Shown here: positions 20,928 to 63,122 of the stretch, one piece after another
Numbering within the stretch: position 1 is the stretch's first letter
Layout of the letters: every line of letters starts with the position of its first letter
NCBI GenBank assembly: GCA_951230915.1
Contig: OX579640.1
Coordinates: forward strand, 15,396,981-15,460,980
Origin: Antitrichia curtipendula
Taxonomy: Eukaryota; Streptophyta; Bryopsida; Hypnales; Leucodontaceae
DNA length: 64,000 nucleotides
Direction: 5' to 3'
Notes under the pieces: model-generated
The model's input: the letters and a program-made list of their open reading frames with translations, nothing else
Database searches by the model: none
Told to the model about the DNA's origin: nothing
Program-made: the position numbers and the translations under genes

Positions 20928-22340
20928 AGGCTAGCATTCAAAGAATCATGTCTCAAGTAGGAGATACCCTTGTGACACCAGGGATGGAACAAGTAGTAGC
21001 TAGGGCGATAATAACCGCGATCAATAACTTGAGGAGTAAAGGTGCTCCCCCAATTATTGATCCTTTGATCGAGAAAAGGAAAGATGACATTGTTGAGAGG
21101 CAAGAAGCGCTTGAGTCAGAGAGGATGAGTTGTTGTTGGAAGAATGTGTCATAGGATTCAAGGCGAGTGCGACCTCGAAGAAATAGCACCTCATCATCTT
21201 TTTTTTCTTTTCATAGTTCATCTAAAGATGATTTTTATAGAGGTCAAGTTGCATCTCACAATCATAGGTCCAAGCAATATAACCATACAGACAAGCAACA
21301 TGTTAATGTTGGGAGAATGTGAAAGTGTGAAACACCTTGTATTTTGCCCTAGTTTTGGAGGGCGTAATGTTAAACCAGAGATGTCCTTTCTCTTTTCTCC
21401 TTTCTCATTTTGGAGGATATGTTTATAGAAGACTATAAGGAGAGAGATAAAATTAAGGCCACCGTCCTCTTACTTAAAGATAAGGCTTGCATTTGGTTTG
21501 ACACGCTTAAAAAGGATCATGAAAACCAAGGCATGGGGGCAATTTGCACTTGGTAAACCTTCGAAGATTTATTTTTTCAACAATTTCTTCTTGATAACTT
21601 CCAATCGTTAATGCGTCAGGGCATGTATCGACTTAGACAAGGAAACATGTCAGTGTCAGAGTATAAATCTAAGTACGATGAACATTGTGCTTACTTTCTT
21701 CTTGGATTGTAAGTGATAAGATTGAGTATTTGGTGAAAAACTTAAAAGATTCCATAAAATTCAAAGTGAGCACATATGCACTTGACGTTTTGAGTGAAGT
21801 ATATTGATTGGCTGGAAATTTTGAGTGACAAGACATAGCAATTGAAAGGAATAATAGTCGCTTCAGTTAAAAACCTATAGGTTCTAGTTTGGACCCTCGC
21901 TTTTCCAAGAGTTGTCGTGAAGAGGGTCAAAATAACAAATCTCAAAGGTTAAACTATTTGAGTGAAAAAAGAAAAGGAGGAACATTTGAGGAAGGGACTA
22001 TGTTTCACATGTCATGAACTTGAGCATCTATCATCAAGTTGCTTCAAGAACAAAAAGCGTGAAACGACAGCCTTAGCAGTAGAAGATGGAGCTGAAGAAA
22101 ACAATGTTAATGACACAGAGATTCAAGTTTCAACTACAGTTATGAACATGGAGGCAGAGCATGAACCAATGGTGGTTAAACTTAAGGGTTATGTCAATTC
22201 TAACCATCCTACTATGATTTTGGTTGATTCAGAATCTACCCATAATATGATCTCAGCACAATTTGCTAAGAAATTAGGACTTCCCCTAATTCTAGTAGCA
22301 CCTTGCTCAATGTTGCTAACAAATGATGACACTAGTTCTA
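20928..22340 (+). pseudogene. Ty3/gypsy gag and protease remnant
   Basis: Broken gag-pro of an LTR retrotransposon, spread over several frames. A retrotransposon-gag-like stretch is readable at about 21421-21715, with the string ACIWFDTL and a later QGMYRLRQGNMSVSEY. The zinc knuckle is clear at about 21996-22038 (CFTCHELEHLSSSC, spacing C-X2-C-X4-H-X4-C). An aspartic-protease segment follows near 22216-22290. Its active-site triad reads DSE rather than DSG, a single base change that would disable it. Frameshifts separate the pieces. The remnant ends where an LTR scrap and an inverted segment begin. Confidence 0.8.
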
Positions 22341-22351
22341 TTGACCACTGC

Positions 22352-22398
22352 ATTTTGAACTCTTGTATAACGTTCTTGTAATAAGTACATTTGGTTCT
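22352..22398 (+). repeat. LTR fragment inside the Ty3/gypsy body
   Basis: This 47-bp piece closely matches 20814-20860 of the 5' LTR (CTCTTGTATAACGTTCTTG here, CTCTTGTGTAACATTCTTG there). It abuts the inverted reverse-transcriptase segment and marks a rearrangement or nested-insertion breakpoint. Confidence 0.7.
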
Positions 22399-22989
22399 TC
22401 TATTATCTTAGAAATTATCAATATATCATCCATGAACACAAGCACAAATTTGCCCAAATATTGACAAAATAAATAATTCATCAAAGTCATAAATGTGGCA
22501 AGAGCATTTGTAAGTCCAAAAGGCATTACAACATACTCATAGTGACCTAATCGGGATCGAAATGCAGTCTTTATAATATTTAATTCTTTTATTCTAATTT
22601 GATGATAGCTAGTCTTCAAGTCAATCTTAGAATATATTTTTGCTCCATGCAAATGATCAAACAAATCATCAACTCTAGGTAAAAGATACTTATTTTTAGT
22701 TATTAATTTATTTAATCCGCTATAATCTACACAAAGTCTTAACGTTCCATCTTTCTTTTTCATGAATAGGACAGGTGCACCCCAAAGAGATTTACTTGGT
22801 CTAATGTATCCCTTATTCAATTAATCGTTTAGTTGATTTTCTAACTCAATATTTTGAGCTAAAGAATGTCGATAGAATGCTTTAGCTATTAGAGCTGCGT
22901 TAGCCACTAAGTCTATGGCATGATCAACTTTTCTAATAGGTGGCAAATTTTCAATTTCATCCGGAAACACATCATCAAACTTCTTCATA
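22399..22989 (-). pseudogene. Ty3/gypsy reverse-transcriptase segment, inverted
   Basis: The minus strand encodes the protease-RT linker and RT core of a Ty3/gypsy polyprotein. Starting near 22989 it reads KKFDDVFPDEIENLPP, then [20 protein letters not shown], and later the catalytic box VFMDDILI. One in-frame TAA lies just before the codons for NKGYIRPS (near 22820). All other domains of the surrounding element lie on the plus strand, so this segment is flipped. RNase H is missing on both strands. Either an intrachromosomal inversion or a fragment of a second gypsy element in opposite orientation would explain it. Confidence 0.88.
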
Positions 22990-23004
22990 GATGAGATTAA
23001 AATA

Positions 23005-24464
23005 CATTATGTCAATGATGAAGCCTTTCAATATCTATATGAAAGTTTGACTAAGGAATCTAGGCTGGTTAAAGAAATAGAGAAATTTAAAGCGTATATC
23101 TTAGAGGACAGTGTCTTATATTATAATACAAGAGTCTGCATTCCAAAACAAGGAGAATTTGGACTCAATGTCATGCATGATCTTCATGACATACCTATTA
23201 CGGGCTATCCAAGTTTTCAAAAGACCTATCTGACTATTAATTGTTCTTATTATTGACAAGGAATGAAAAAGAACATTAAAGATTATATAGAGAGGTGTTT
23301 GAAGTGTCAAATTTCAAAGATTGAACAAATTAAAAGTCTTGGTTTCTTACAACCTCTTGGAGTTCTAAATTTGAAATGGGAATCTATCGGTATGGATTTT
23401 ATTGTAGGCCTACCTAGAACTCCAAGAACTCCAAGAACTCCATCAGGATATGATAGCATCTTTGTTGTAGTAGATCGATTGACAAAATCTGCTCGATTTA
23501 TTCCTACAATTATCACTGCCACTGCTTCTAGTGTAGCTGAATTGTTCATGAAACATATTTTTGGGAATCATGGTCTACCTTCAAAGATTATAAGTGATAG
23601 AGATCGTAAGTATATAAGTGAATTTTGGTCATTCCTTTTTAAGCTATGTGGAACAAAAATTCGTCTAAGTACAGAGTATCACCTTGAGATTGATGGTCAA
23701 ACGGAACGAACTAATAGAATTTTTGAGGATATACTTTGGATGTATATTGGTAAAAAACAACACTCTTGGGATAAATGGCTACATTTAGTATAATTTTCTT
23801 ATAACAATACAACTCATAGTCTTATACTCTTATTGATACCAATCCATTCTTTGCCTTGTACGGTCAAGAATGTAAGACTCCAATTTTTCTATCAACCCCT
23901 AACTCAAAGGTTGAAAGTGTAAATCAAATGATAAGGGATATGAACGAAGTCATTGAATTTGTAAAGCTGAATATAAAGAGCGCTCAAGATAGAGCTAAAT
24001 TTTATGCTGATAAGAAAATAAGTTTTCGTGAGTTTGCGGTAGGTGATAAAGTTTTTTTTAAAGTTACATCTAAAAGGTCAGGACCAAAACTTGGTAAGTC
24101 AAAGAATTTATCTCTTCAATTTTGTAGTCCATTTGAAATTAGCAAATGTATAGGACCAGTGGCTTATGAATTGAATTTGCCTTCCAATTGGAAGATTCAC
24201 AATGTTTTTTATGTGAGTTTGTTGCGGAAATATATTTCTGATCCCAACCATGTGCTACATGAGCTTCCTAAAGTTGCTCCTGAAGGAACATTACTTGCAA
24301 AACCAGAGACAATACTAAAAGTTGATATGCAGCATCTACAGAATAAATCATTCCAAAGGCTATTGATAAAGTGGAAGGATTACCCTAAAGATGAAGCTTC
24401 TTGGGAAAGAAAGATTGATTTTCGAAAAGATTACCCTAGTTTTGTCATTGAGGACAATGACTAG
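23005..24464 (+). pseudogene. Ty3/gypsy integrase with chromodomain-like C-terminus
   Basis: Plus-strand integrase remnant. The zinc-binding part keeps CLKC (about 23299-23310), but the second histidine of the HHCC set is Tyr (GYPSFQKT). The catalytic core is readable: MDFIVGLP, then SDRDRKY, then DGQTERTNR, giving the D, D and E positions. A TGA (23254-23256) sits where the family has Trp in YYWQGMKK, and a TAA at 23791-23793 ends the next frame. After a frameshift the C-terminal part (23856-24464) ends with WKDYPKDEASWE, typical of a chromovirus chromodomain. The frame stops at TAG just before the polypurine tract. Confidence 0.88.
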
Positions 24465-31761: not shown

Positions 31762-32078
31762 AATAACTTCTGCGAGTGGGGTGTATGAGCATGGGGTTCA
31801 TGACAGATCTTCCCTCCTCTCGTGATTTTTGTTTTTGCGGTGCTTTGATTGCGTCTTCTTCAATGTTTAGGTTTGCAGTAGCTTTGCGCCTTCATGGCCG
31901 CAAGCGGAAGTTGCTTCACTTAAGCCTACCTCCAATTCCAGCCGATTGCTTGTGTTCAGGCAGCAATTTGCAGGGCCCCCTTGTGGTGATAGTGAATTTA
32001 CCATTCTTTTGTTTGTCGTCTGCTGCTTGCATGAACTTGGTCGTTTACTAACAATCTCTTGGGAGTTGGGAATTTGGG

Positions 32079-35000
32079 ATGGGTTCTGGGGACGAGGACT
32101 CCGGAGGCGATGTTGTTCAGAAGGCGGTGCGGGCTGCTTCACGTGCTCGTACAGCGAGTAAGAAAGCTGAGGTAGCAGCAGCGGAGGCGTTGGCCCTCGC
32201 TCGGGCGGAGATCAAAAGGAAGGGCAAACTGATCGAAGAGCGGAAGGTGCAACAGGCCAAGAAAACCATGCGCTCATACTTTGAGTCAAGCCGAGGTGCC
32301 GCTGGGGGGGAGCCGCTGCATTTGGTCTTCGCTGGTTCGCTTCCGGACGTGCCAGGGGCGGAGCCCAACTCCGGGGAAGATTATCCAAGTCCTGATTCTT
32401 TGGGTCAATTGCGGGCCTTGGCTAGAAGCACGTCGCTCTCTGGTACTGTCGATGTTGTTCTCGGTTCCTCCTCCGGCTCTGGAGACACAAGGGTTCTCAG
32501 TTCTAGATCACCGCTGATCCACATCTCCTCCGAGTCGGAAAACGCAGACCATGTCAATTTGCGGGAAGTGCCAGATGATGCTGAGGGTTCAGAAGACGAT
32601 TCGGATTTCGAGTCTCCTCTGAAGAAACGAGGTGCCTCTGCTCGCACGAAGTCCCAGAGTAGCAGATCCACATCGCAGAAATGGTACAATCGGCACAGGA
32701 AGTTCCAGACCTTGTGGGCGGCTAAATTACCGTGGGCAGAGGGCATCATGGCGTCCGATGGCATTCTCTAGATGGTCAAATGTAAGGTTTGTAGTGCTTT
32801 TGAACGCAAGCCTTGCATCATGGCACCTAAGAGCGACACACTCTTCAAACACGATGGAAAACGAATTGCTAAAAAGGATATGCTGCAATTCAAAGTCAAG
32901 AAGGGAGAGAGCTACGTCGCCACTCAATGCAGGCACCGCAAAAACTTGCGACTATACGCAGCGAAACCACCGCCCACCGTGCTGGAACAGCTTCATGAGT
33001 GCACGATCGTCGAATCAAAGAAGAAATGAGTCCAATTCGCAACATTGTTCCAAGTCCTGTTTGAGGGTCGACCCATGCTTGAGTACGAATCTAGGGCCCG
33101 CTTGTACAAGTTCCTGAACGTACCTGACGTTCCGTCAGCACATTGGTGCGACAACTCTGGTTGGCTCATGGCGGGCTATGTGTATCAACAAGTTGTTGCA
33201 GAGATGCGAAACTTGATTCAATCAGCATGTTACATTGCTGCCACGGTTGATGAGGTAACTGCGGTGGATAACACCAGCTGGTTATCCGTCCATGTGTATA
33301 TTGTCCAACAGTGGGTGAGGGTTCCACTTCTAGTCTCTCTGCAACGTGTAGATTGTTCACCGAATGCTGATAATTTGACGAAGTTGATTATGGAGTCTGT
33401 GGCTAGTGGTGGTGGGCTGGACTCTGAGGCAATAGCCTCGAAGCTATTGAGCTTTGGCGCCGACGGAGCTTCTACCTTGCAGGGAAACAGATCGGGAGTG
33501 ACCATGCAAATCAAAGAAAAATATGCACCGTTTCTCATGGGCGTCCACTACGTAGCACACCGGTGCAATTTGGCATTCAAGGCCCTGTCCGAACTTGGCA
33601 TTTTCGGGGCAATCGAGAAATTGCTGTTAGTGACCTACGCCTATTTCTGCAAAAGTCCGAAAAGATTGGAGGAGTTCAGGCAATTGGCAGAGCTCACGGA
33701 GACCAAGGGCCTGAAACTCCTGAAAAATGTGCAAACCCGATAAATGAGCCTAATTGAGCCTCTTCGGAGGCTACTTTCTGAGTATCGGACCCTTGTTTAT
33801 AAAATGACAGCTGATCTCCAAGAGAACGCTAAGGCCGAGGTGAGTATTCTTGACCTGTCTCTTTTTTTATTTTTCTCTGCATGTGTTTTCATTGTGGGTG
33901 GCTACCTTTATATCCAGTCGTTGTTTTCTTTTAATTTACATTTTTTTTTGGTGCTGTGGCTTGGTGGCCACACCATGGAGGGCTTCTGTGGGTGTGGTAC
34001 AGCCTATACTTCCTAGTATGCTTGTTATCAATGATGCCGCAAGATGCTTTGAAGTCCTTGTTTTTGTATAGAACTAACAAAGTCTGTGCATGTGCAGCCT
34101 TGCCTTGTGCTACTTCTTGATCCGTATACCATGCTGGGTATGTGTGCACTTTTGCCTCTACTGGAGGCAATTGATTCCTTGGTGAACTTTGCCCAGAAGA
34201 GAGATGTTTACATCTGTGACTTCGTGGCGGCTGTCAAGGTTTGCCAGGGGTCTTTGTATCGCATGTACGAGGACCAGGCCACAGCATTCAAGTGTGACGA
34301 ATTCTGGAGTTTCAACAATCTAGTTGATTGTTCGCACGAACAGATCCACATGAAGTGGTTGATTGATGGGAGTGACTCTCCCATTCTTTCTTTCATTTGT
34401 CACGGTGAAACCATTCATGCTGAGCACAAGGGGAAGACTGTGGACCGGGAGTTGTGGGCCTCATTGCTTGCCATGGTGAAGAGCGAATGCACAGGTAATA
34501 TGAAGTTCTATGTCTTGCTTGCTTGATGTTTCAGTTCTGTTTGTTGATTTTATTTCATGTCTGTGGTTGTTCTGTATTAGATGCCAGTGGTTGTTCTGAC
34601 TGTGTCGATGTTTCCTGGAGCGCAGAGGCTGCAAAGACGTTGGTGCGGGAGTTGGATGATAGATTTCCCGCTCACCATGTTATGAATGCGTTCGGGATAT
34701 TGTATCCTCAGTACTGGTGTCACGCTGCAGCAGAGGAGAATTTTGACAAGCATCTACGTATACTTATGGAGACATATGGGCATGGGAAACTCTTGGGCCA
34801 AGGAGAGGACAAACTTCTCCTTAAACCGCTCATTAATCGTGATGCAGTCATGTCACAGCGTGCACTATTCAAAACTTGCATGAAGTCGAATTCACGCACC
34901 GCCATGCTGCCTCCTTTTGACATCAATCCACTGACAAAGATCTGGAGGGTATTGGACAGTAACAACAATTTGACTCAGAGCTTTGGTGAATTCCTAAATT

Positions 35001-35230
35001 TGGCCGAAATGGCGTTGGTCCATGTGATTGGGTCGGTTGAAGACGAGCGCCTGTTCTCCAGTCTCGGGTTTCTTAAATCAAAGCTCTGAAGCAATCTCGA
35101 TGAACACATCCAGGTAGTCGTTGGAATGTATTCTCAGCGCATTTTTGACCTAGAAACCTTCTCCTACCAGCGCGTCTTTGACGACTGGTTTGTTTCAGGG
35201 GGCAGGGGTAGATATATGGCCAGCACTTAG
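32079..35230 (+). pseudogene. hAT transposase pseudogene, three exons, four in-frame stops
   Basis: The model joins 32079-33839, 34098-34494 and 34581-35230 at GT-AG sites with matching phases. Order of domains: a Ser/Glu-rich leader, a BED/TTF-like zinc-finger region (CKVC and later CRHRKN, about 32781-32945), the RNase-H-like core (FGADGAS near 33451, VHYVAHRCNLAF near 33543), and the C-terminal hAT dimerisation region (VEDERLFSSLGFLKSKL, about 35037-35086). Four stops break one continuous frame: TAG 32769, TGA 33027, TAA 33741 and TGA 35087. Each sits where the family has a sense codon that could become a stop by C-to-T or G-to-A change. There are no coding frameshifts, so the decay looks mutational rather than rearranged. 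Resembles animal/plant C17orf113/ZNF862-like hAT proteins. Confidence 0.88.
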
Positions 35231-50631: not shown

Positions 50632-50641
50632 TATGCAAGTG

Positions 50642-50683
50642 CAACGGTGCTAGACTGTGAGCTTGCGAGCGTGAGCATACGAG
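50642..50683 (+). repeat. Left terminal inverted repeat of the Mutator-like element
   Basis: The repeat begins CAACGGTGCTA and contains spaced GTGAGC / GCGAGC / GTGAGC boxes that continue to about 50706. It pairs with 63071-63112. Confidence 0.85.
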
Positions 50684-50829
50684 CCGTGAGCAAGGAATAT
50701 GTGAGCATAGAGGTCTGTATTTTAAAAATACCTTAGGGAAGTCAATCATATTTCAAAAAGTTAACAATATCTTAAAAATATTGAAAATATTTTCTATTTA
50801 TATTGAAAATTTAGAACTTCTTATCGTCG

Positions 50830-50886
50830 ACCTATTACCGTGGACCTATGACCGTGGACATATTACCGTGGACATATTACCATCAT
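50830..50886 (+). repeat. Left subterminal 14-bp tandem boxes
   Basis: Four consecutive units of C(C/A)TAT(T/G)ACCGTGGA, the last one degenerate. The first, with a preceding A, is identical to the single right-end box (63023-63037, opposite strand). Their position inside both termini suggests a transposase-binding site; this is inference. Confidence 0.75.
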
Positions 50887-51130
50887 TATTTATTATTTGC
50901 AAGGTGACACTAATTTTACCTATTGGCTGAAGGATGAAAAATAAATAATTTGAAGGCAAACAACTGTAGGACATAAAATGCAAGTCGGATCTGAAAACAG
51001 TTTGTATTAAATACTTCGAAAAACGACAATATTCACCCAAATAGAAATCGGTGCTTTTAAAGCTATAAAACTAACTTCAGTCTATAATCTTCCAATCTCA
51101 TATGTCTATCATTTTGACATTTTTTGGTCT

Positions 51131-54100
51131 CTAAACATTTGGAAGACTCTCATTTGCCACCTTGATGATACCAGCCCTATTGAGAAGGAGTTTCACTTTG
51201 TTGAAGCTGAAGCTTAGAGAATGTATGAACTTATCTTTTTCGGGATTCATCTTGCAGAAGTAACGAAATAAGTAGTACAAATGTTTGCAATTAACGTATT
51301 GCTGCCGTCCCCCAATTGCTGAGACAGCCATATCTACAAAATTGGGACAATTACATTCCGAGTACATGCCAAGTGTGATATGATAAACCTTCTGTGTAGG
51401 CTCGGTTCCGGATTGAAGAGAAATTATAGCTCCAAGTCCTGGAAAGGGGAGCATGGTTACTCCCAAGATGGATCCCTTGACATTACCAGCACTCTCCCAT
51501 TTATTGCAATGCTCTGTAGTAGGGGCATTTGCAATACGTCGAATAGCCTTGCTTCTTCGAGTTGTTGGGTATGTGTCCGCATGCAAAGGACTAGGTTGAT
51601 CATAAGGGATTGCATAGAAAACATTGGACATTGTGAACAAACGTCGAGGTGACATAGGTGGTCGCTATTGAAGTTGAAAGCCAGCCTCTTGCAGTAGCAG
51701 TGTCTCTTGGCGAGTCAAACTAGTACCCGTTAATATAGGCCAAACATCTGGTACTTGAGGCCAGTCAATTACCCAACCACGTTTAGAGCCTCGTACACAT
51801 CGTTCGATATCATCTGGGCAAAACCAAAAGTCGGTGATGATCTCCTTATTTCTGCCATATTGTTTTTTTCTACCACGATACGTCGAAGCTGGAGTGCCTT
51901 TAGATCCCTTTGCAATTTTGGCCACACAACGAATGTTGGAACCCCTTTGCTAGGCGTGACATTTGCAAGCAGACTTGTGCAAAATTCTTGCAATGTGCCA
52001 ATGTGAAGTATCACAATCACTCTCCATTGCTGTCGTAACATGTGGTACGTGCGCAATATCATCCACCAAGTCTTCATTGGATGCCATTGTGGGCGGATGT
52101 ATAGATCGTGTTTGGACATGTGGCTGTGAGAAGTTCACCTTGTCTAGACGATGGAAGTCACCATATGATCCAATTGGGAGGTCAAGCTCACGCACACTGC
52201 TACCAAAAACCTCTTTGCCTTCCAAATGAGGAATGCGTGTTCTAACATCAGTTGCTCCGGGAAGGTCATTCAAAGCCTCGGCAATCTTCTTTGGATCTCT
52301 GCTGCATCTAGCACCTCTTAACTTTAACTCCTCATTGGATGGCCCTGACCTTGATACATTGCCTTTAAAGAAAGCACGATAATTTGTCATCTGCATGAAG
52401 GCTCGAATGCAATCATCGGAAGTGGCGGCAAAAAGATCATTACCTCGATTACCCGATTGCTGCAACCACCTGTTATGGACTGTTTTGGATAGATTGCATG
52501 ATGGCATGTCTGCCATCTCCTCAATGCTTAAATCTTGGAAGAAGCAAGATAAAGAATAAGATGCAAGATAGTCACTAAGACAATCAATCCAGAAAAATTA
52601 CTACTGACAAAGTAATGAAGTACTTCTGAACTGTTGCATACGCAGTGTACAGTCCCCTCAGCGCCGAGGGGAAGGTCAACTACTACCATGCTTACATCCT
52701 GGAACCAGTAAAACAATGAATAAGATGCAAAACCGTCACGGAAAATTACAATCTCTAAATGTCATTTAGTAATTTTCAAGTAGCTACTAAGCACTATAGA
52801 GTCCCCTCGGCGCCAAGGGAAGGTCAACTATTACTTGAGGTAATCAAAAACACCGGTATATAGTATAATTAGACGGGGCCCAAAAGAGAATAACTCAAAT
52901 ATATATATATATATAATTACAAGAAAAAAATAGAAAAATAAATAGAGAAATAAAATACAAATTAAAAAAAAAATTAAAAAAATATTGAAAATGAAAATAA
53001 TGAAATGCATGACATAGACTACAAAAGAAATGACGTGGAATGAATTACCATTTGCATGAATCCGCCCCATTGTCGATATCGAAAGTGCCAAAATGCAAGC
53101 CACAACTCTAATTCCCTTAGACCATCTTCAGAGGCTGCTTCAGATGATAGCTACCATGATCGAATCGCTAAGTATCTCATCTCAGCTTCATCCATACTTT
53201 TAGAATCCTTGTATTGCTTACACAGACGAATATGTTAGTGTTGAAAGTCCGATTTTATGAGCTTCTGCGTATGGCAATGTAGTGATGTACTCCAATGCAA
53301 GAGACATGTTAGCTCATGGTTTTTCATCTCTACTTTGGAATCCCCTGATCCGTATATAATACGCACAACATTTCAATTTGCTTGTGCACTATCTGCCATG
53401 AGGCCTTTGAAGTTTGGATTCTGTACACCATTGCGCCTCATGACCCCGTTCAATAACTTCCACATGATGCATTGTACTTCCATGTCTTCAGATTGCATGT
53501 CACAAACTGCGATTGTCATGACTTTTCTGCATCCAGTATCATACACATGGCAAGCCATGGTTGTCCAATCCTTGACGCGTTTGACATGGTCAAACATAAG
53601 CCATGCATTCTCTAAATCTCCTCCAGGTTGCATACGGGTGACTAAGTCCACTCCACTGCCTGGAACTTCAACCAACATCTTAAACAAATAGACTTTTTCC
53701 TTTCCTTGTCTAGGAAAGACACTGTCATGAATATACTCAAACCTCAAATTCCGTTTCATATTCATGATGCTATCTATAACCCCGCTCTTCCCACTAGTAC
53801 GAAAAGAGGAAATGACGTTTCGGATGTTTGGAGAATTGAGAATCTGAAACTTGTCCATGACTTCCTCTAGTGAGTTCCCCCGCAACATTTCTTTTTTCCC
53901 TTCCCCATTATGAATGAGGTGGTTGTCTAGAAATTGCTTACTAGCTGCTAAAGCAATTGCAGAGTTAGTGGCAGCAGGTGTTTTAGTAACCTTGTTTGCA
54001 ATGAGCCCGGAAATAGTGTCTAATAACTCTCTGCATGTTCCGGAAGCTACAGGATGCATATGAACCCCAAAGTGAATGCATGCTCTAGTCATCTGCATTG

Positions 54101-54999
54101 TATCGCCAAAAACGTAATGTATTCTAGCATCACATGTATTGACACAATGAAGAAGAAATTTGCATATCTTGCACAAAAGACATGAATCTTTGGGAGGGTT
54201 TCCGCCAATATGAAAAGGAACAGGAGTATAACCATACCACTCAATTTCATCTCCATTGCTAATATTCGTTGTTATGGTCCGACACCATGCATGTCCATCA
54301 TATTTCTTATGCATGCCCTGTAGACTCCCAGCAGCAAATGATGAAGATGAACCCCGAAGACAGGGCAACTCAAAGACTAAATCACCATCAAACTCAGCAG
54401 GAAGATACTGCACCTTCTAGTGATTGAGGGAGTCGTAGTTTAAAGCAGCAATTTCATTTCTAGATTTGCGAAGCATTGCTAGCTTGCGTAAGCATCCAAC
54501 AATACTAATTGACGATGGACCAGTTGGGTAAGTTGGTGGTCGAGAGTGACTTGACAGAGCTGGATTATTGGAAGGCGGGCAGAATACATCAGATGTTGCC
54601 TTTCCGCCATCATTGGAGACTCTACTTGGATGCGTTACTTGACAAATAGGTTGATTCGGAGATTCTCCCTCCGACTCACTAGACAGATCTATGACAAAAT
54701 CAACACGCTCTTGCTTTATACGGACGAGTTAAACAGGTGTAGTCGCACTCGTCACATACTTGCGTTTTGTAGAATTTCTACTATCACGACAGGTAAGAGG
54801 CATATTCACTGTTGAGTGTTCTGACTACCGAGCCAAAATCTCAGTGGAAGGTAGCGTGACACTACATGGTAAACCATAAGCTCGATAATGCCCAGATCGA
54901 AGGTGCCAGACATGAGCAAGGTCAACTACTACATACGGAATGTGGACGGTCTCTTTCAAAGAACCAGACTCAATCATTACCTCTTCTTCAACATAGACA
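51131..54999 (-). pseudogene. Mutator-like SWIM zinc-finger transposase, eight in-frame stops
   Basis: The minus-strand frame runs from about 54999 to a GT donor after 53049, then resumes near 52530 and continues to TAG at 51131. Readable parts: a transposase-core-like region with an aspartate in TIAVCDMQSED and another in GLMADSAQANW (near 53380), then LLHWSTSLHCHTQKLI. Downstream come CNLSKTVHNRWLQQSGNRG and, near the C-terminus, a SWIM pattern: CNC at 51347-51355 and CKH at 51281-51289. SWIM plus a DDE-type core is characteristic of MuDR/FAR1-like proteins. Stops: TAG 54825, TAA 54729, TAG 54417, TGA 53373, TAA 53235, TAG 53151, TAG 51950, TAG 51665. No frameshifts are needed within exons. 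The 5' end is unresolved; an upstream exon near 55070-55180 is possible. Superfamily placement rests on SWIM, D motifs and target duplication. Confidence 0.8.
52530..52836 (-). repeat. 148-bp tandem duplication in the transposase intron
   Basis: On the minus strand, TAGTTGACCTTCCC...GAGGGGACT...TGCATCTTATTC...TTCCA(G/A) occurs twice, 148 bp apart (GGTCAAC anchors at 52822 and 52674 on the plus strand). Each copy ends in an acceptor-like TTCCAG/TTCCAAG followed by (G)AT(G/T)TAAGCAT. The duplication spans the 3' end of an intron and makes the true acceptor ambiguous. Confidence 0.75.
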
Positions 55000-55180
55000 C
55001 TAGATTGTATAAAACCGAACCAAACATGAAGAAGATGTGACGATAAAACAGCAAACCGTCTTCTCGTAGATGAATTACCAGTGGAGTCTCATGACCATCC
55101 GCACAAACGGAGGCCATAGAAGTTAAACAAATCAGTACAGAAAGTAAGACAAGAAAAAAGAGAACATGAAAAACACACAT

Positions 55181-55917
55181 TGCTTAAACTTCAGGTGAGC
55201 GTTCAAAATCACAATATACACAAGAGACTAACATGAATTTGAAATCCAAAGTCATTGTATTGTAGCCTCATCATTATCGATGAATTACGCATTAATGACA
55301 AAACCTATAGATTTACAATATCTTGCCACTACGAACGCTAATCAATAGTGAAGCTCACCTAATTCATGAATAACAATTATGTGAAAAGTCCAAAAATATG
55401 GGCCCCTTAGCTGCAAGGAGGCACTATGATATTATGGAAAATCGGTAAGCATCCATTGTACCCACCAACTTCTTATTATCAGTAAATAACTGACGATTTG
55501 GTATATTATGACCACCCACCTTGCATACTAATTTCAAAAATTGAGGGCGCCACAGTATTAAGCTTTTACGGTCCTAATGTAAGGATATAATATCCTTTAC
55601 TGTGCTTCTAAGATTATTATTTCGGAGATTGGATTAGACAATCATAAAGTACTACCCGAATCAAATTTGAATATTAAACAATACTCTGACCACAATTTCA
55701 GGATTTTATGAAGGACACCACAAATAAGGGTCTGCAAGAGGTCATCCATAGAGAAGTGCATCTACACTTCATACTGTATAAATATCAGTATATCAGCACA
55801 AGGTTGGACACTGTTAAAAATATTGAGTAACTATTTTTCTTCTCTCATGCTCGGAGTCTCCTGAAGTGCACACATGTTCGTGTATAGTCTGGTTTTGAAA
55901 TATGTACATTTACTCTT
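55181..55917. promoter_or_regulatory. Divergent intergenic region, likely bidirectional promoter
   Basis: The two genes of the Mutator-like element start on either side of this gap. On the plus strand TATAAATAT lies at 55777-55785, about 140 bp upstream of the first plausible ATG (55918), a good TATA position. I see no equally clear TATA box for the minus-strand gene. Confidence 0.5.
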
Positions 55918-58900
55918 ATGCATACACTAGATGGAATAGCCGATTGTGACTCTCGCTGTAAGAGTAGGAAGAGAAGAAAAAGAGGTAAACTCTTGTACTC
56001 ATCAAGGAAGCAATTGCAGAGGTTTCGCATTAGAGGTACCAATACTACTATATTATGTGAGTCACTTCATAGCAGGGGATCATCAAGCCATCTAATTCAC
56101 GGACATGAAGACTTCCATTTCCCTGCATATGGGAGTGAGCAAATGGTAACTAACATCGCAAAGGAGCCGTTGAATCATTGTAATTTGATTTCACCATCGC
56201 CTAATTCGGTAAGTCCATTACGTTATTCAGTTCATTGGTCATTTACTGAATCTTTCATTATTCTTTAGGATTTCACGATTTCTAATGCAATGACCAAGTG
56301 GCACATCTATGCTAAGTTGAAATATAAGTAGCCCTTATAATTATATTAGATCTATTCAATTGCAGACGATGGATACTTAATGTATATTGAATGGGCTTCC
56401 AATGTCGAGAACCAACTTCATAGATCATCCCAAACCCTAGAACAACCTGTGCGTCGTAACGACCGGATAGGCCTCCTTAACCGTAGCCTTCGTCACACAG
56501 AAACCACCAGACACGCAACTCTCGATCCTTTCAAACAGTTGGTACGCCCGAGTAGAGATTGAACTGCATAGTGCGAAAACTAATACTCAAAACTCTCAAA
56601 GGGCTTTAGAAGATTCTACGTGTCTAAAACCATACATCTCGGTCTTGCTTAACAAAGTTGCGATTTTTTGGTGAAGTTGACTAAGGGAATGGGAAGACGA
56701 CCTGCAACTCGGCGCTCAGTGATGGAAGGGACACAAGAAGACAACCACAGCAACGACAGCCATGCCGAGCTAGGAAAACAAGTGGGAATTGAAATCACGT
56801 CTTCACGCACTGCCACGGAGTCAGAGGTATGGGAACTCCAAATTCATTATCCAAATATGTCAATGGATCGAATCTTGAGTTGAGCTCCAAGCGTCTATCA
56901 CTTGAAACCCTAGCACTTTTCTTGGTTATGCATTCAGTCAGGGTCCCTTTAGTAATCCCTCGGCGTCGAAGGGGGCCACGCAAGGTCGGCACAAGCAGAA
57001 GAGCCCCAATCCCACTTTCCTTTTTTTGCATTTTGCGGACTCGACCGAAAAGTATGCGCTGCATTGTTTTGGTGCACCAGCGATCAGTTTGGGGTCCTTG
57101 TTGATAGCCCTCGGCGCCGACGGGAGCCAGGGAGGTCGAACGAGGAAGGTAAGCCCCCCGCTCAGTCTTTTGTCTTTTCTGTTTAGGACTCTCGACCTGG
57201 ATAAGATCGGTATAATTTTTTTGATTACACAATCAGCTTGGGACCCTTGTTGACAGCCCTCGGGGCCGATGGTCTCCCGGGACGTCGACAGAGGAAGGTG
57301 AGCCCTCCACCCACTTCCTTGGTTTTTCTGTTTATGGGCTCTCGACCTGGTTACGGTTGGCCCATTTTATTTTGATTACGCGATCAGCTTGGGGTCCTTG
57401 TAGACAGCCCTAGGCACCGATGGTCATCCGGGACGTCCACAGAGAAAGGTGAGCCCTCCACCTATTCCTTGGTTTTTCTGTTTATGGGCTCTCGACTTGG
57501 TTACGGTTGGCCCATTTTATTTTGATTACGCAAACAGTTTGGGGTCCTTGTTGATAGCCCTCGGCGCCGACGGGAGCCAGGGAGGTCGAACGAGGAAGGT
57601 AAGCCCCCCGCCCAGTCCTTTGTCTTTTCTGTTTAGGGCTCTCGACCTGGTTAAGATCGGTATAATTTTTTTGATTACACAATCAGCTTGGGGTCCTTAT
57701 TGACAGCCCTCGGCGCCAATGGTCTCCTAGGACATCGACAGAGGAAGGTGAGCTCCCCACACACTTCTTTGGTTTTTCTGTTTAGGGGCTCTTGACTTGG
57801 TTACATTGGCCCATTTTATTTTGATTACGCGATCAGCTTGGGGTCCTTGTAGACAGCCCTAGGCACCGATGGTCACCCGGGACGTCCACAGAGAAAGATG
57901 AGCCCTCCACCTATTCCTTGGTTTTTTTGTCTAGGGGATCTCGACCTGGTTAAGTTCGGTATTTTTTTTTTGATTACGTGATCAGTTTGGGGTCCTTGTA
58001 GACAGCCCTCGGCACCGATGGTCATCCGGGACGTCCACAGAGGAAGGTGAGCCCCAAACCCTGTCTCTTTTGGAGGGACTTAGGATTACTTCTGGTGTCC
58101 TCTGGGTACAACCTCAATGCCAATGGGGCCACCGCAAGGTCATGTCATGTCAATAAGCCTTCATGTTTTTGTTATTCTTTCATCCGGGGCTTTTTTTCTT
58201 TGTTCTCTACCACTATTGTTGGCGATTGGTGGCATGTGCACCTTCAAGTCGGGATAGTCGAGCTTTCAGCATTTTTACTTAGTTTATTTTTTGCCAATGC
58301 AGATAGCGGACGGTGATATCCCTTTACAGTCTCACGTTTCTGAGATACAAGTCATCGTCGGAGAAGAAGCCGACATGGTCAATGTCACTGAGCACGAGGA
58401 GGAGTTTGAAGATGAATTCAAATCCGAGAACGCATTGAGGAAGGTTCAGAAAGTCAATTCGAATGCATCAATTATCAACTTGAGATTAAAACTACATTCT
58501 ATTTCCCGACTCAGGATTCCCTTGTGCCGTCTTATTCAGATGCCAATGGTTTAGCCAGCGCTTCAGTGTGACCTCATTAAATTGGAGCAAGTGTTTGTCC
58601 ACAGGTACAGGGATGGCTCGTGTATTTTTTATGTTTCGCTAACTAACGAGCAAGGGGAGACGGAGATGGTTTCAGATGCAGACAAAGAGGCTTGGGGACC
58701 CATGTGGAATGAAGAAAACGACATCTTCAACTCCACTCTGAGTGAAACTCCAGGGTTGAAGGATCTTCAGAGGTCCAAATTCTTTGTCTGTGATGGAAAT
58801 CACAGACTCCTTGCGTGGATTTCATACATCAAGAAACACCATGAACGTGATAGGGATTGGCATATTTCAGTGGATTCAATCATTCTTGAAACCAAGGGCC

Positions 58901-61900
58901 GAATCGGAGATGTAATGCATGCCATACATGACATCAACAAGTAAGTTGATCATCTCCTTGTATTTTCATTTTCCTGTTCTCTACATCGCTGACATAGAGA
59001 TATCTTATCAACTCCATTATGCTTTGCAAGCACATAGAGAATTCCTTCATCAAGACAAGCTTGATACACACGTTGTATCGTGTCCGTAAGTATGGGATGT
59101 TACCACTTGAGAAGTTCTCCGAACACTTGAGTGAAAGTGAGATGTTGTTGTGCCATCAAAATCTCCGAAAGAGTTGGTATACGATGTCGCTTGAAGTTTT
59201 CACTTCATTTATATTCCGGGTAATTATACTATCTGATATTTCTAGTTTATTTGCTTCTTGTTTTTTAATTTTTTAATAATTTGTTTACCATGTTCACTAA
59301 TCAATCTGTGCTTCCGCAGTACGAGATTGCTGCCGCTTCCGATCTTGCAGTTCGGTTATACAAAGAAGAGACTTTGGAGGAGGAGTAGTCGGAGGAGGAT
59401 GTACTTGCTGCAATGAGATTGGGAACTAAAGAGAAGACTTCGAGATTGATACAAAAGTTGGGCAAATTAACCGCCGTCGCCAACCCAAGTCTTGGGATTG
59501 ATTGGCTTCTAGAGGTATGTACCAACATTCGTATATATACTGGTTAATTTTTGGTGTCCTTTGATCTCTCTAATTGAAGTTCACTTTTGTTTTAGATTGA
59601 GTGCCATTGGAGCTCAAACGTCACTCCAGAGATGACTCTGGAGAAGTTGTAGTTGATTGCAACGTGCAACATCAGCAGCTTTTAGAAGGTGAAGTGGCTC
59701 CACTGGTGAAATTCTTCTGTTTAGACAAGAGAAGCGAGACGATTTCCAGTGAAGCCAGTTGGAGAGAACGAGTTGAAGTCTTTATTGGCAAAAGCCTGTT
59801 GGTATGCAGGGGTAAGTGATGTAGCTGCAATTACATTTTGGATCCTGATAAGTTTTTGTTCAACTCTGCCTTATAAGAATTGGAGTTTTGCTTCTTCAAA
59901 ATGTAATCAAATGCATGCAGCTAATTCCGTGATCTTGATGTACAGATTGAAGAAGTTGGGTCGGAAATGTTTGATAACATTGTTAAGAAGGACCAACTGA
60001 ATTTGGCGATGGATTCTCCCATGGAGCTAGAGAGTTTTGCGGAGTATCTAGAGGGATGGAGAATTCGAGTTTGGGACCATGCATTCATTATCCAATTCAG
60101 AGGACATGACGTCTTCAAGAAGTTCGATGACTTTAGAAAGCATAAGGGCTCCGATCTAGTGGTGAAACGTGTCACATACCAGTACGTATTCTTGTGGATG
60201 TTGTCATTGATACATATTTATGTTTGTTTCGTAAACTTTGTTCAAGTTTTTAACGGGTATTTTCTGGTGTTTTAGGTATTTCAAGTATGAGCTTTTGCCA
60301 AAGGGTGCGATCCTGAAACGTGATCTTCCTCCTTTTCTGGAAACGTGGTTGGATGTTTCTTCTGAGCACTGCATGTTCTCTCCGTCGCAGTTGAAGTGGT
60401 GGACTAGTTTGCACTTGAAGTCGGGAGCGTGGTACTTGGACTGTCCATTGGAGTTCACACCGTTGCCTGAAGAGCACCTCAAACAATCAATCAACTCCCA
60501 CCAGATTGTTGAAGAGATTGACGAGTTTGTTGGACTTGATGAGGATGCCAAAGCCAGAGCTATGAAGCGGAGAGATGAGGCGTACAAGAAAATTGCTCAA
60601 AAGAACTCTGAGGCGGTGGACAAAGTCAAAAAGAGGATTTCCAAGAAAACACAGAAACTGCTTGAGACGGAGAGTGCCGTTGCAGTTGTGAAGACAAAAG
60701 GGAAGAAGAAGAGGGAGCTAGAACCGCCTTCATCAACCATCGATGAGGGCTCGCAGCACCAGCGTTCTTTTTCTCGTGGCACCAAGCGTGACGCTGAGTA
60801 CGCTTCACTTAGCAGCGATGAAATCCATTATGGACCTGCAGCTGTGGATTATTTGAAGGACTCAGAGATTACTATCTCTGAGTTGGTTTAGAACTATTCT
60901 GTTGCAAATGTACTGGCAGATCCTCTCTCCAAGGTCTACAACGATCTTGTCTGTTTCATTGATTACGTTAGTAGCTTCACCGTCATTCATGATTTCCCTG
61001 CGGTATATTTTGTGATTGTCATTTTTCTTTATACTGATGGAGACAATGATGTTGCAGCACAAAGGAGTCAAGCAGCGTAACTTCAAAGGTACACAAAGTG
61101 ATAAACCTCGTGTTGACTTAGTTATCGCGGGTATGCCTGAGGGACTACCTGTTCCTTCTTTGTCCATGCCAGCTACTAGTACTTCCATGTAGAACAGGGC
61201 TCAACCTACATGGTTGGAGGCGGTATTTGAGTTTGCGGATGGGCATTTCCATGATGATGGTGCTATTGTAATTATTCATCCACGATGCACTATTGCAAAG
61301 GCAACCATTCTGAACTATGCTGCTACCTACTCGTTTATAAAGATGAAGGATTGGTGGGGAACGAATTGGTACATCTCGCATCACCTGTTTCTACGGGATG
61401 CACGGTTAGTTTTCAATTTTCTTTGTTTGAATTGTTTGAATGATGTTTCTTCTTTTTAGCTATATTTCATTAGTAACTTCCGAGTTCTTGGGTTTTTCAA
61501 GTGCGTTGGTAGTATTTATCTACACATTTGTTTTTAACCAAATGTTTTTATACATCTTCTTTCTCGCAGACCCAATTCTTTCGAGTTATGCTGTTGATGA
61601 GGAATTTGGTTGGGGTTGGACCTTCCAAATTCCAATTCCAATCATGTCCGAAGCTGAAGGAATTAGGGGTAGATGTTGTTGTGGATGATGTTCTGCAGAA
61701 TTTCACGAAGAAAGAGACTTTGACCATGGAAAACAACTTCAAGCCTTGGAGAGGGGCACGAGAAAAGGATCCCCGATTCTTGCAGATGTTGATAGAAGCA
61801 TCAATATATCCCAATGATATTGTTGTCGGCTGCACTGCTGCAACGGGTAATTTTTGATGCCTTCATAAGTTATGTTTGGTATTGGCGCCTTCTTATATTC

Positions 61901-62572
61901 CTTTTATGTTTTTTTGAATGCTTTAGTACTTAACTTTGTTGTCTTCTTGGTGGTAGGTGCTTCCATCCACGCTTGTAGGATCTTGAGCAGGCATGTAGTG
62001 GCACTTGAAGAGGATAAGGCAATCTTCGATGCTATTTTGGTTCCAATGATACGCACAGTTGCAGATGTTCCTTCTTCAACTGCAGCAATCATAGTGGATT
62101 CTGATGATGAAGATGCTGTGGAGGTTATTGTTCCCCACATTGTGAAGAAATCATGTTTCAATAAGTAAGTCTATCCATAGCTTGCACTATTTTCCTATTT
62201 GTATGTGAAGGCTCCCCTAATTCATTTATTTACTCCTTTTGAATCTATGTTGCATGTTTGTTTAGTTATGAATGTGATATTCAAAACATGTCTAATAATT
62301 TGTTTCCATCTTGCAGCATGACTTCTAATGGAGGAGGTCATCGTCCATTTTTTACGCTATCTAGTTTTCTTCCAAGCCCAGAGAAGTCCTTTGCATTGCT
62401 TGAGTATGCCAAAGCTTTAGCTTCAACATTTGCATGTCAAAGGAATTTTCCAAGCCGGAAAAAATCTACAACTATAGATCGTAGGGTTCTACAGTTTGTA
62501 GATGTCACAGCCCTAGAATCAGAGATAGATACTTCATCCACTGATAGTAGTGGCAACTTTGATTCTATGTGA
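55918..62572 (+). pseudogene. ParB-like / beta-class DNA methyltransferase-like gene of the transposon
   Basis: Multi-exon gene. Supported exons: 58303-58940, 59031-59219, 59320-59514, 59596-59811, 59946-60181, 60276-60933, 61058-61404, 61570-61846, 61957-62164, 62317-62572. Exons upstream (55918-56208, about 56366-56562, 56668-56883) are tentative. DGNHRLLAW (58792-58818) matches the ParB/sulfiredoxin nucleotide-binding motif. The C-terminal part reads VDLVIAGMPEG (61112-61144; family form would be DPPY-like, motif IV), then FADGHFHDDGAIVIIHP and KDWWG. After that comes DIVVGCTAATGAS (61816 into the 61957 exon; SAM-binding motif I) and RHVVALEED. Motif IV before motif I is the permuted beta-class order of N4/N6 amino-methyltransferases. 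Stops: 59386, 59650, 59683, 59707, 59722, 60889, 61190, plus 58552 (perhaps a frameshift). The donor after 58940 reads AAGTAAGT and seems to have lost one G. Substrate is unknown. Confidence 0.7.
56938..58055 (+). repeat. 150-bp satellite array inside the methyltransferase-like gene
   Basis: A unit of about 150 bp repeats seven to eight times. The anchor GGGGTCCTTG or its variants recur near 57091, 57240, 57391, 57540, 57690, 57840 and 57989, with a diverged first unit from 56938. Each unit holds CCCTCGGCGCCGA, a donor-like GGAAGGT(A/G)AGCC, a pyrimidine tract with TTTTTCTGTTTA(G/T)G, and TTGATTACGCGATCAG. It lies between the tentative 5' exons and the first firm coding exon. Confidence 0.9.
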
Positions 62573-63022
62573 CTCGTTTTTCTTATTGATCATGCGTTTG
62601 TTGGGTTTAATATTGTTTATTACTTGTTGTTTTCTGTAATTCAATTATAAGTAAATCATAACTTCAACTACCTACTAAATGGATTGAAGTTCAACTTCAT
62701 ATTGCTTAGAAGTTCACAAATTTCATAATCATACCAAATTTTGAATTGAACCCTAAACTACATTTCGTGAACTATATTTTAGTAGTTCATGTTGAATTAG
62801 GAAGGCATTGTCCTAAACAATAGTAAATATCCTAAACCACTTCACTTCAATGGTGATTTTCAGGTTATATTAGTATTATAATCACAATTACATAACAATC
62901 TAAACCCTAAACCATAAATAAATTTTATGAAAAACTCTTGAATTACTTTTTAAAAAGGTTAGGAAAAGGATCATTAATGTTTTAGGATCCTAAAATGTGG
63001 AAATATAAACATCATAGTAAAA
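62573..63022. other. 3' non-coding part of the Mutator-like element
   Basis: AT-rich sequence between the stop codon (62570-62572) and the right subterminal box. It includes short inverted pieces of GAAGTTCAACTTC type and no reading frame. Confidence 0.5.
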
Positions 63023-63037
63023 TCCACGGTAATAGGT
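63023..63037 (-). repeat. Right subterminal box
   Basis: On the minus strand ACCTATTACCGTGGA, identical to 50830-50844 at the left end. It is a single copy 75 bp from the right terminus. Confidence 0.75.
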
Positions 63038-63070
63038 ACCTCATCAACTTTCATCCCAAAAAATTGAGCA

Positions 63071-63112
63071 CTCACACGCTCATGCTCACAGGCTCACAAA
63101 ATAGCAACCCTG
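63071..63112 (-). repeat. Right terminal inverted repeat of the Mutator-like element
   Basis: Read inward it begins CAGGGTTGCTA and carries GTGAGC, GTGAGC, ATGAGC and GTGAG boxes. Thirty of 42 positions match the left terminus. TATGCAAGTG follows directly. Confidence 0.85.
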
Positions 63113-63122
63113 TATGCAAGTG

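What the first reader, a model, noticed from the sequence alone, without database searches (positions are those of the whole stretch)
50642..63112. Complete 12.5-kb Mutator-like element pairing a SWIM transposase with a methyltransferase-like gene
Seen: inverted termini (30 of 42 matches), an exact 10-bp duplication TATGCAAGTG, a shared subterminal box, and two divergent multi-exon genes filling the interior. Known: autonomous Mutator-like elements usually carry a MURA-type transposase; accessory genes such as mudrB or ULP1-like proteases occur in some lineages. Inference: here the accessory gene is a ParB-like plus amino-methyltransferase-like protein, a combination I do not know from plant Mutator elements.
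Basis: partly seen in the sequence, partly recalled or inferred. Interest (0 to 1): 0.9.

Follow-up and report, generated by a model that had tools for sequence, protein, structure and literature searches.

The report
Jumping gene carrying DNA-methyltransferase-like partner
This is a decayed copy of a jumping-gene family in a plant, probably moss-like, genome whose members carry, beside the gene for jumping, a second gene resembling bacterial DNA-modifying enzymes and rows of one short palindrome in its first intron, which suggests the elements may recognise and mark themselves.

Summary
The 12.5-kb element has imperfect inverted termini (30/42), a 10-bp target duplication and two divergent multi-exon genes. 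It belongs to a large family: 96 of 117 scored transposase hits have an accessory-gene hit divergently upstream within 20 kb (chance mean 0.5). Of 15 distinct insertion sites checked, 12 have exact 10-bp duplications. The window copy is coding-dead.

The accessory protein has a beta-class amino-methyltransferase-like domain (PF01555 in 7 of 7 copies aligned) with a non-canonical motif (mostly D-M/L-P-E-G instead of DPPY) and evolved under purifying selection. ParB kinship is not confirmed; MULE and SWIM profiles do not match the transposase.

New: intron 1 of the accessory gene holds tandem arrays whose units differ between copies but usually keep a palindrome, TCGGCGCCGA (1,228 genomic sites versus 118 for its reversed control; 38 of the first 50 listed lie within 10 kb of scored element genes).

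Best reading: a transposon with a self-recognition system, working like Arabidopsis VANC anti-silencing; function is inferred. ParB-plus-methyltransferase genes are published for algal transposons, so this is a new variant of a known kind.

The parts
50632..50641 (.). left target-site duplication TATGCAAGTG
50642..63112 (.). whole element, 12,471 bp
   Evidence: alignments of two further whole copies reach element positions 1 and 12471; flanks differ outside
50642..50683 (+). left imperfect terminal inverted repeat, built of GTGAGC-like units
   Evidence: 30 of 42; left-end query: 40 of 40 scored matches (118 candidates) start at base 1
50821..50881 (+). left subterminal tandem 14-bp repeats containing ACCTATTACCGTGG
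51131..55117 (-). transposase gene (broken in this copy): 5' exon about 55117-53049, intron, SWIM-signature exon about 52520-51131
   Evidence: open frames of up to 858 aa in other copies
52657..52668 (.). palindrome-like site CTCAGCGCCGAG in transposase intron
52806..52817 (.). palindrome-like site CTCGGCGCCAAG in transposase intron
   Evidence: exact TCGGCGCCGA at about the same place in three other copies
56689..62573 (+). accessory gene (broken in this copy); exons 56689-56826, 58303-58940, 59000-59219, 59320-59514, 59596-59811, 59946-60181, 60276-61002, about 61058-61404, 61570-61846, 61957-62164, 62317-62573
   Evidence: exons 58303-62573 also aligned in two copies; model, no transcript evidence
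56941..58055 (+). tandem array of about 149-bp units in accessory intron 1 (8 related 38-mers from 56941 to 58027; Tandem Repeats Finder span 57083-58055)
58303..58940 (+). exon with the motif CDGNHRLLAW, recalled as ParB-like (not confirmed by profiles)
61058..62164 (+). beta-class amino-methyltransferase-like domain (motif IV first, motif I last)
63023..63037 (-). right copy of subterminal box ACCTATTACCGTGGA
63071..63112 (-). right imperfect terminal inverted repeat
63113..63122 (.). right target-site duplication TATGCAAGTG

Best explanation
A dead copy of a large two-gene cut-and-paste transposon family (Mutator-like by duplication length and SWIM signature). Its second, divergent gene is a conserved partner, not cargo: a large protein with a possible ParB-like N-terminal part and a beta-class amino-methyltransferase-like domain. 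Shown: the family, its termini, 10-bp duplications, the regular divergent pairing, purifying selection on the second gene, and recurrent palindrome arrays in its first intron. Inferred: the second protein recognises the palindrome CTCGGCGCCGAG as a dimer, loads on the element's own non-coding DNA and, with its SAM-binding domain, marks or shields that DNA so that the element escapes host silencing and keeps both genes expressed, much as VANC proteins do for Arabidopsis VANDAL elements.
For: Pairing: 96 of 117 transposase hits, all 96 divergent; random placement mean 0.455, maximum 5 in 200 trials (contig lengths partly approximate). Exact 10-bp duplications at 12 of 15 distinct sites, one of them by eye. 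PF01555 in 7 of 7 copies, best 6e-7, over the motif I region; a profile of these copies finds DpnA among PDB sequences, E 0.0018, over motif I. dN/dS of the accessory gene 0.10-0.13 in the 5 between-subfamily pairs with a measurable value, of 11 pairs run. Arrays in intron 1 with units of 149, 107, 106, 108, 139 and 85 bp and different flanks; TCGGCGCCGA at two or more sites in 6 of 11 intron-1 regions, while in 50 random resamplings no 10-mer was so repeated in more than 2. 1,228 sites genome-wide versus 118 for the reversed palindrome; 38 of the first 50 listed sites (9 of 17 clusters) lie in the 1.1% of that sequence within 10 kb of scored element genes. In the window all 9 sites with at most 2 mismatches to CTCGGCGCCGAG lie inside the element. 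VANC21 binds short motifs that form tandem arrays in introns and upstream regions of its own element (PMC5735166, sections 8 and 9).
Against: No binding, expression or methylation data. No ParB profile matches; ParB_N has 0 hits in the genome while the control rang in 10 of 14. The canonical motif IV (DPPY-type) is absent from all 16 distinct copies read and from the three Ceratodon relatives, so catalysis is uncertain, and the stretch aligning DxPEG to DPPY of DpnA scores only -0.4 bits. Of 11 intron-1 regions 2 have no core, 1 a single site and 2 only near forms. The copy at C2:50.49 Mb has accessory exon 1 and an array but no further accessory exon in the 23 kb read. 21 of 117 transposase hits had no scored partner. 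VANC motifs lie in one orientation and are not palindromes, so the parallel is functional only. Structure predictions failed (pLDDT 52 and 28).
Confidence: 0.5

Rival explanations
1. The palindrome arrays are enhancer or promoter sites for the transposase or a host transcription factor that drives the two divergent genes; the methyltransferase-like protein does something else, such as helping transposition.
For: Sites lie in introns of both genes; GGCGCC cores also occur in host E2F-type sites (recalled, no call).
Against: In the four copies examined the sites are concentrated in the accessory gene's own intron, with one or two in the transposase intron. No test here of which protein binds.
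Confidence: 0.25
2. The second protein is a catalytically dead SAM-binding or DNA-binding scaffold, or modifies something other than DNA; its conservation reflects a structural role.
For: The aromatic of motif IV is missing in all 16 distinct copies read and in the three Ceratodon relatives; dN/dS is higher in the MTase than in the ParB-like part in 5 of 5 pairs measurable for both.
Against: Motif I and the acidic motif II stay largely intact (D-C-T-A-x-T-G, L-E-E-D); MTase dN/dS is still 0.12-0.15 in the five between-subfamily pairs with a value.
Confidence: 0.15
3. The arrays are a minisatellite or tandemly copied splice-donor segments with no binding function; the palindrome survives by descent.
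For: Several arrays carry donor-like GTRAGC in each unit; AGGTGAGC is repeated in 5 of 11 regions, above the resampled maximum of 4.
Against: The donor-like motif is absent from some consensus units that keep the palindrome or a near form (by eye); 9 of the 12 most shared 10-mers overlap the core; genome-wide excess near element genes.
Confidence: 0.08
4. The second gene is a captured host gene carried as cargo (Pack-MULE-like).
For: Capture is described for MULEs (PMC6446971, passages).
Against: Divergent partner of 96 of 117 hits, 150 scored copies, purifying selection across saturated synonymous divergence.
Confidence: 0.02

Closest known systems
Sola1-1_Ec32 ParB-like plus DNA methyltransferase accessory gene (Ectocarpus; similar proteins cited for green and red algal transposons), PMC12477816
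   Same: Second gene on the strand opposite the transposase, 1,104 aa, with a ParB-like part and an N4C/N6A-type methyltransferase part; proposed there to bind and modify its own transposon (section 5 read).
   Different: Sola superfamily, 21.5-kb brown-algal element; no palindrome arrays mentioned in the section read. I could not compare sequences; the two papers it cites are not held.
VANC anti-silencing proteins of Arabidopsis VANDAL (MULE) elements, PMC5735166 and PMC10398659
   Same: Element-encoded accessory protein; short motifs in tandem arrays inside introns and upstream non-coding regions that turn over fast (PMC5735166: abstract, sections 8 and 9 read; PMC10398659: abstract and outline).
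   Different: VANC has DUF1985/DUF287; its motif YAGTATTAY is not a palindrome; no sequence kinship shown here.
TET/JBP dioxygenases carried by fungal transposons, PMC12730594
   Same: Transposons of several lineages carry a DNA-modification enzyme, proposed to help escape silencing (passages read).
   Different: Oxidises 5-methylcytosine; unrelated enzyme, other transposases.
Mariner elements with endonuclease and methyltransferase genes in large algal viruses, PMC3627910
   Same: Transposon-encoded methyltransferases (passages read).
   Different: Methyltransf_26 or C5-type domains, virus-integrated Mariner.
Mutator-like elements with mudrB, mutB or vanB/vanC, PMC6446971
   Same: SWIM-type fingers, duplications mostly of 8-11 bp, extra ORFs (passages read).
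   Different: The word methyltransferase has 0 occurrences in that paper's main text; the present transposase matches no MULE profile.

Membership tests
Mutator-like elements (MULE) | 8-11 bp target-site duplication | tested here: met
   10 bp exact at 12 of 15 distinct sites (9 by script, window and C4:32.3, C6:20.9 by eye)
Mutator-like elements (MULE) | terminal inverted repeats | tested here: met
   30 of 42, 0 of 200,000 random pairs
Mutator-like elements (MULE) | MULE-type DDE transposase by profile (such as PF10551) | tested here: not met
   transposase exons of two other copies match no MULE model in Pfam, E up to 10; the genome-wide PF10551 search did not complete
Mutator-like elements (MULE) | C-terminal SWIM finger CxCx(n)CxH | tested here: inconclusive
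   signature CNCPxF...CKH in 4 of 4 copies, but no match to a SWIM model
beta-class amino-methyltransferases (N6_N4_Mtase, PF01555) | profile match | tested here: met
   7 of 7 copies, best 6e-7; the first member scores 25.9 bits against a cut-off of 26.7
beta-class amino-methyltransferases (N6_N4_Mtase, PF01555) | motif IV before motif I | tested here: met
   motif I significant at the C-terminal end; motif IV placed N-terminally by a sub-threshold stretch of -0.4 bits and by eye
beta-class amino-methyltransferases (N6_N4_Mtase, PF01555) | catalytic motif (D/N/S)PP(Y/F/W) | tested here: not met
   D-M/L-P-E-G in 12 of 16 distinct copies, one residue different in the other 4; DAPEG in three Ceratodon proteins
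ParB/Srx fold | match to ParB_N or a related profile | tested here: not met
   only the motif CDGNHRLLAW, recalled as ParB-like
VANC-like anti-silencing system (works like) | element-encoded protein acting on motif arrays in its own non-coding DNA | tested here: inconclusive
   arrays and their enrichment near elements shown; binding and loss of silencing not testable here

The most novel reading that the evidence does not exclude
A land-plant transposon family runs a parS-like self-recognition system: a ParB-like protein fused to an unusual methyltransferase (conserved DxPEG catalytic variant) binds a palindrome whose arrays the element keeps in its own introns while the rest of the repeat unit changes, and so writes 6mA, 4mC or another mark that separates its own DNA from host chromatin and blocks silencing.
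Probability: 0.3. Interest if true: 0.88.

Novelty: new variant of a known kind. Interest (0 to 1): 0.72.

Why it matters
How transposons escape silencing, and whether 6mA or 4mC has a real role in plant genomes, are open questions. Here is a high-copy family with a candidate writer, a candidate binding site and a shared rule (core kept, flanks changed) that makes both directly testable. It would extend the algal ParB-methyltransferase accessory genes to a plant, probably bryophyte, SWIM-type element.

Tried and rejected
Rejected: chance termini; cargo gene. TATGCAAGTG looked over-represented against its reversed control, but that control contains a CpG, so the comparison was dropped.

Led nowhere: protein search with the broken window protein (none among 7,995 scored candidates); the copy L055 found three Ceratodon proteins among 7,992 scored, and the profile search the same three among 7,995. 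Structure of the ParB-like exon (pLDDT 51.8), its fold search (best E 0.22, meaningless), structure of Ceratodon P0001 with three sequences (pLDDT 28). Transposase against PDB sequences: nothing at E up to 1. Two papers cited by PMC12477816 are not held.

Limits of the counts: the 7 of 11 for CGGCGCCGAG counts the single site of L071 twice, so I use 6 of 11 for TCGGCGCCGA. Before that count I dropped L064 and L065 (same subfamily as L063) and L069 (same as L068); for four copies (window, E3, E4, E2) I cut out the array stretch by hand, for the other seven I used the 2.7 kb as fetched. E3 and E4 are 97% alike in the gene, so the 11 regions are not fully independent. The resampling keeps first-order composition, not exact dinucleotide counts. 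In one search several contig lengths were approximate. In one search, 4 of 11 pairs (all with L060) had saturated synonymous change and gave no ratio; dS above 1 makes the other ratios rough. The TSD check covers 14 end pairs that I chose from the listed ends (three of them one duplicated site) plus the window, E3 and E4; other copies of the C1 block were not checked.
Full report
Observation. The element at 50642-63112 is real. Its ends match 30 of 42 (0 of 200,000 random 42-mer pairs of the window reach 30), and it is flanked by TATGCAAGTG on both sides. The exact 15-mer ACCTATTACCGTGGA sits inside each end, once per strand in the window, within a short tandem repeat on the left.

Family. The window lies in an unnamed 400-Mb genome in 303 contigs. 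One transposase exon finds 117 scored places, the window's own included, among 1,507 first-look candidates. One accessory exon finds 150 scored places among 1,150 candidates, identities 55-100%. Of the 117 transposase places, 96 have an accessory hit within 20 kb, and all 96 are divergent and upstream (82 of 101 outside a duplicated block on C1). Random placement gives a mean of 0.455 and a maximum of 5 in 200 trials, with partly approximate contig lengths. Since only the best candidates are scored, the 21 without a partner may lack a scored one or may lack the gene.

Ends of copies. Two further copies were read whole (C3:13.07 Mb, 12,752 bp; C4:32.32 Mb, 14,850 bp); both hold both genes, and their alignments reach element positions 1 and 12471. 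A third (C2:50.49 Mb) was read over 23 kb: it has the left end, the transposase, accessory exon 1 and an array, but no further accessory exon. The left end as query gives 40 scored matches of 118 candidates, all 40 starting at its first base. The right end gives 41 matched pieces from 40 scored of 167 candidates, 35 of them reaching its last base. Over 15 distinct insertion sites, counting the duplicated C1 block once, 11 have exact 10-bp duplications (window, C4:32.3, C7:4.8, C3:20.1, C1:13.8, C10:16.6, C6:0.95, C7:11.9, C1 block, C1:42.9, C2:32.1). One more (C6:20.9) is exact by eye after a 3-base shift at a mutated end, one is 9/10 (C4:0.2), one 8/10 (C9:2.7) and one has none (C3:13.07).

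State of this copy. The accessory model has 8 internal stops and a frame slip; the transposase has at least 7 stops and a frame slip near its start. Other copies read through these stop positions, though the copies have stops of their own. So the window copy is complete in structure and dead in coding. By my reading, 11 of the 15 stops are TAG; that this reflects decay at methylated CHG sites is inference.

Accessory protein. Pfam finds PF01555 (N6_N4_Mtase) at E 0.015 in the broken protein, and in 7 of 7 copies aligned, best 6e-7, the first member just under the curated cut-off. A profile of those 7 copies finds the DpnA adenine methyltransferase among PDB sequences at E 0.0018 over motif I; a second, sub-threshold stretch (-0.4 bits) lays the family's DxPEG on DPPY near the start of DpnA. 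Six PHROG methyltransferase families match 4 to 7 of the 7. The order, motif IV first and motif I last, is that of beta-class enzymes (class naming recalled). Motif I (mostly D-C-T-A-x-T-G-A-S) and the following L-E-E-D are conserved. Of 16 distinct copies read at motif IV, 12 have D-M/L-P-E-G, 4 differ from it by one residue, and none has DPPY. The only homologues scored in 5.8 billion proteins are three hypothetical proteins of the moss Ceratodon purpureus, 27-33% identical, with D-A-P-E-G. This is the only hint to the host's kinship: probably a bryophyte, by inference. Their gene models start after the ParB-like part.

ParB-like part. The exon 58303-58940 has CDGNHRLLAW, well kept in the copies and recalled as ParB-like. 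No Pfam, PHROG or PDB profile supports it, and ParB_N finds 0 places in the genome while the control rings in 10 of 14 genomes. It stays a lead.

Selection. Over the whole accessory gene, dN/dS is 0.10, 0.11, 0.13, 0.12 and 0.12 in five pairs of different subfamilies (dS 1.2-2.0, so rough), 0.16 and 0.34 in two closer pairs, and not measurable in four pairs with L060 (11 pairs). The ParB-like part is at 0.04-0.08 in four pairs and 0.32 in the closest pair. The gene was kept under selection as the family diversified.

Palindrome arrays. Intron 1 of the accessory gene is a tandem array in the window (149-bp units) and in the three other copies read (107, 106 and 108/256 bp). The units differ, but each consensus carries CTCGGCGCCGA. 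Ten more intron-1 regions were fetched from other copies. Further arrays have 139-bp or 85-bp units with CTCGGCGCCGAG or near forms such as CTCGGTGCCGAG and CTCGGCCCCGAG; two regions have no core and one a single site. Taking 11 regions after dropping three near-duplicates, TCGGCGCCGA occurs at two or more sites in 6 of 11, while in 50 resamplings no 10-mer was repeated in more than 2. Genome-wide it has 1,228 sites against 118 for its reversed form, which is also a palindrome of the same composition. Of the first 50 sites listed, all on C1 below 24 Mb, 38 (9 of 17 clusters) lie within 10 kb of a scored element gene, an area of 1.1%; the other 12 were not examined. In the window, all 9 sites with up to two mismatches to CTCGGCGCCGAG are in the element: two in the transposase intron, one in accessory exon 1, six in intron 1.

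Mechanism. A gapless palindrome kept while the repeat unit around it changes is what a dimeric DNA-binding protein would impose. The natural candidate is the element's own second protein. VANC21 of Arabidopsis binds short motifs that form fast-changing tandem arrays in introns and upstream regions of its own MULE, and VANC induces loss of DNA methylation there (PMC5735166, abstract and sections 8 and 9 read). I infer a comparable self-recognition here, with a SAM-binding domain that may add 6mA or 4mC. Which protein binds, and whether it methylates, is not shown.

What is known. [quoted passage not shown] So the gene pair as a kind is published. The SWIM-type element with 10-bp duplications in a plant, the conserved DxPEG variant and the intron palindrome arrays are what this case adds; I saw no report of them in the searches, which cover open-licence PubMed Central papers only and were not aimed at each of these features.

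Noticed in passing
G000 C1:41.44-42.12 Mb and contig C209: 16 closely similar transposase places on C1 plus one on C209, in both orientations, 9-68 kb apart and mostly 37-59 kb; the three copies checked share the same 10-bp duplication AAGAATGAAT. This looks like amplification of a large block, or an assembly feature.
   Followed up: partly
window 22338-24464: Pieces of a Gypsy-type retrotransposon (reverse transcriptase-, integrase- and chromodomain-like frames), judged by eye from ORFs.
   Followed up: no
window 32052-35089: Frames that look like a hAT-type or domesticated transposase gene, judged by eye.
   Followed up: no
L020, positions 3-450: In one C1 copy an accessory-gene fragment lies on the same strand just before the transposase exon; by position it probably belongs to the neighbouring opposite-strand copy at C1:41737221.
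   Followed up: no
array periods: Unit lengths 149, 107, 106, 139 and 85 bp are near whole helical turns if about 10.6 bp per turn is assumed; not tested.
   Followed up: no
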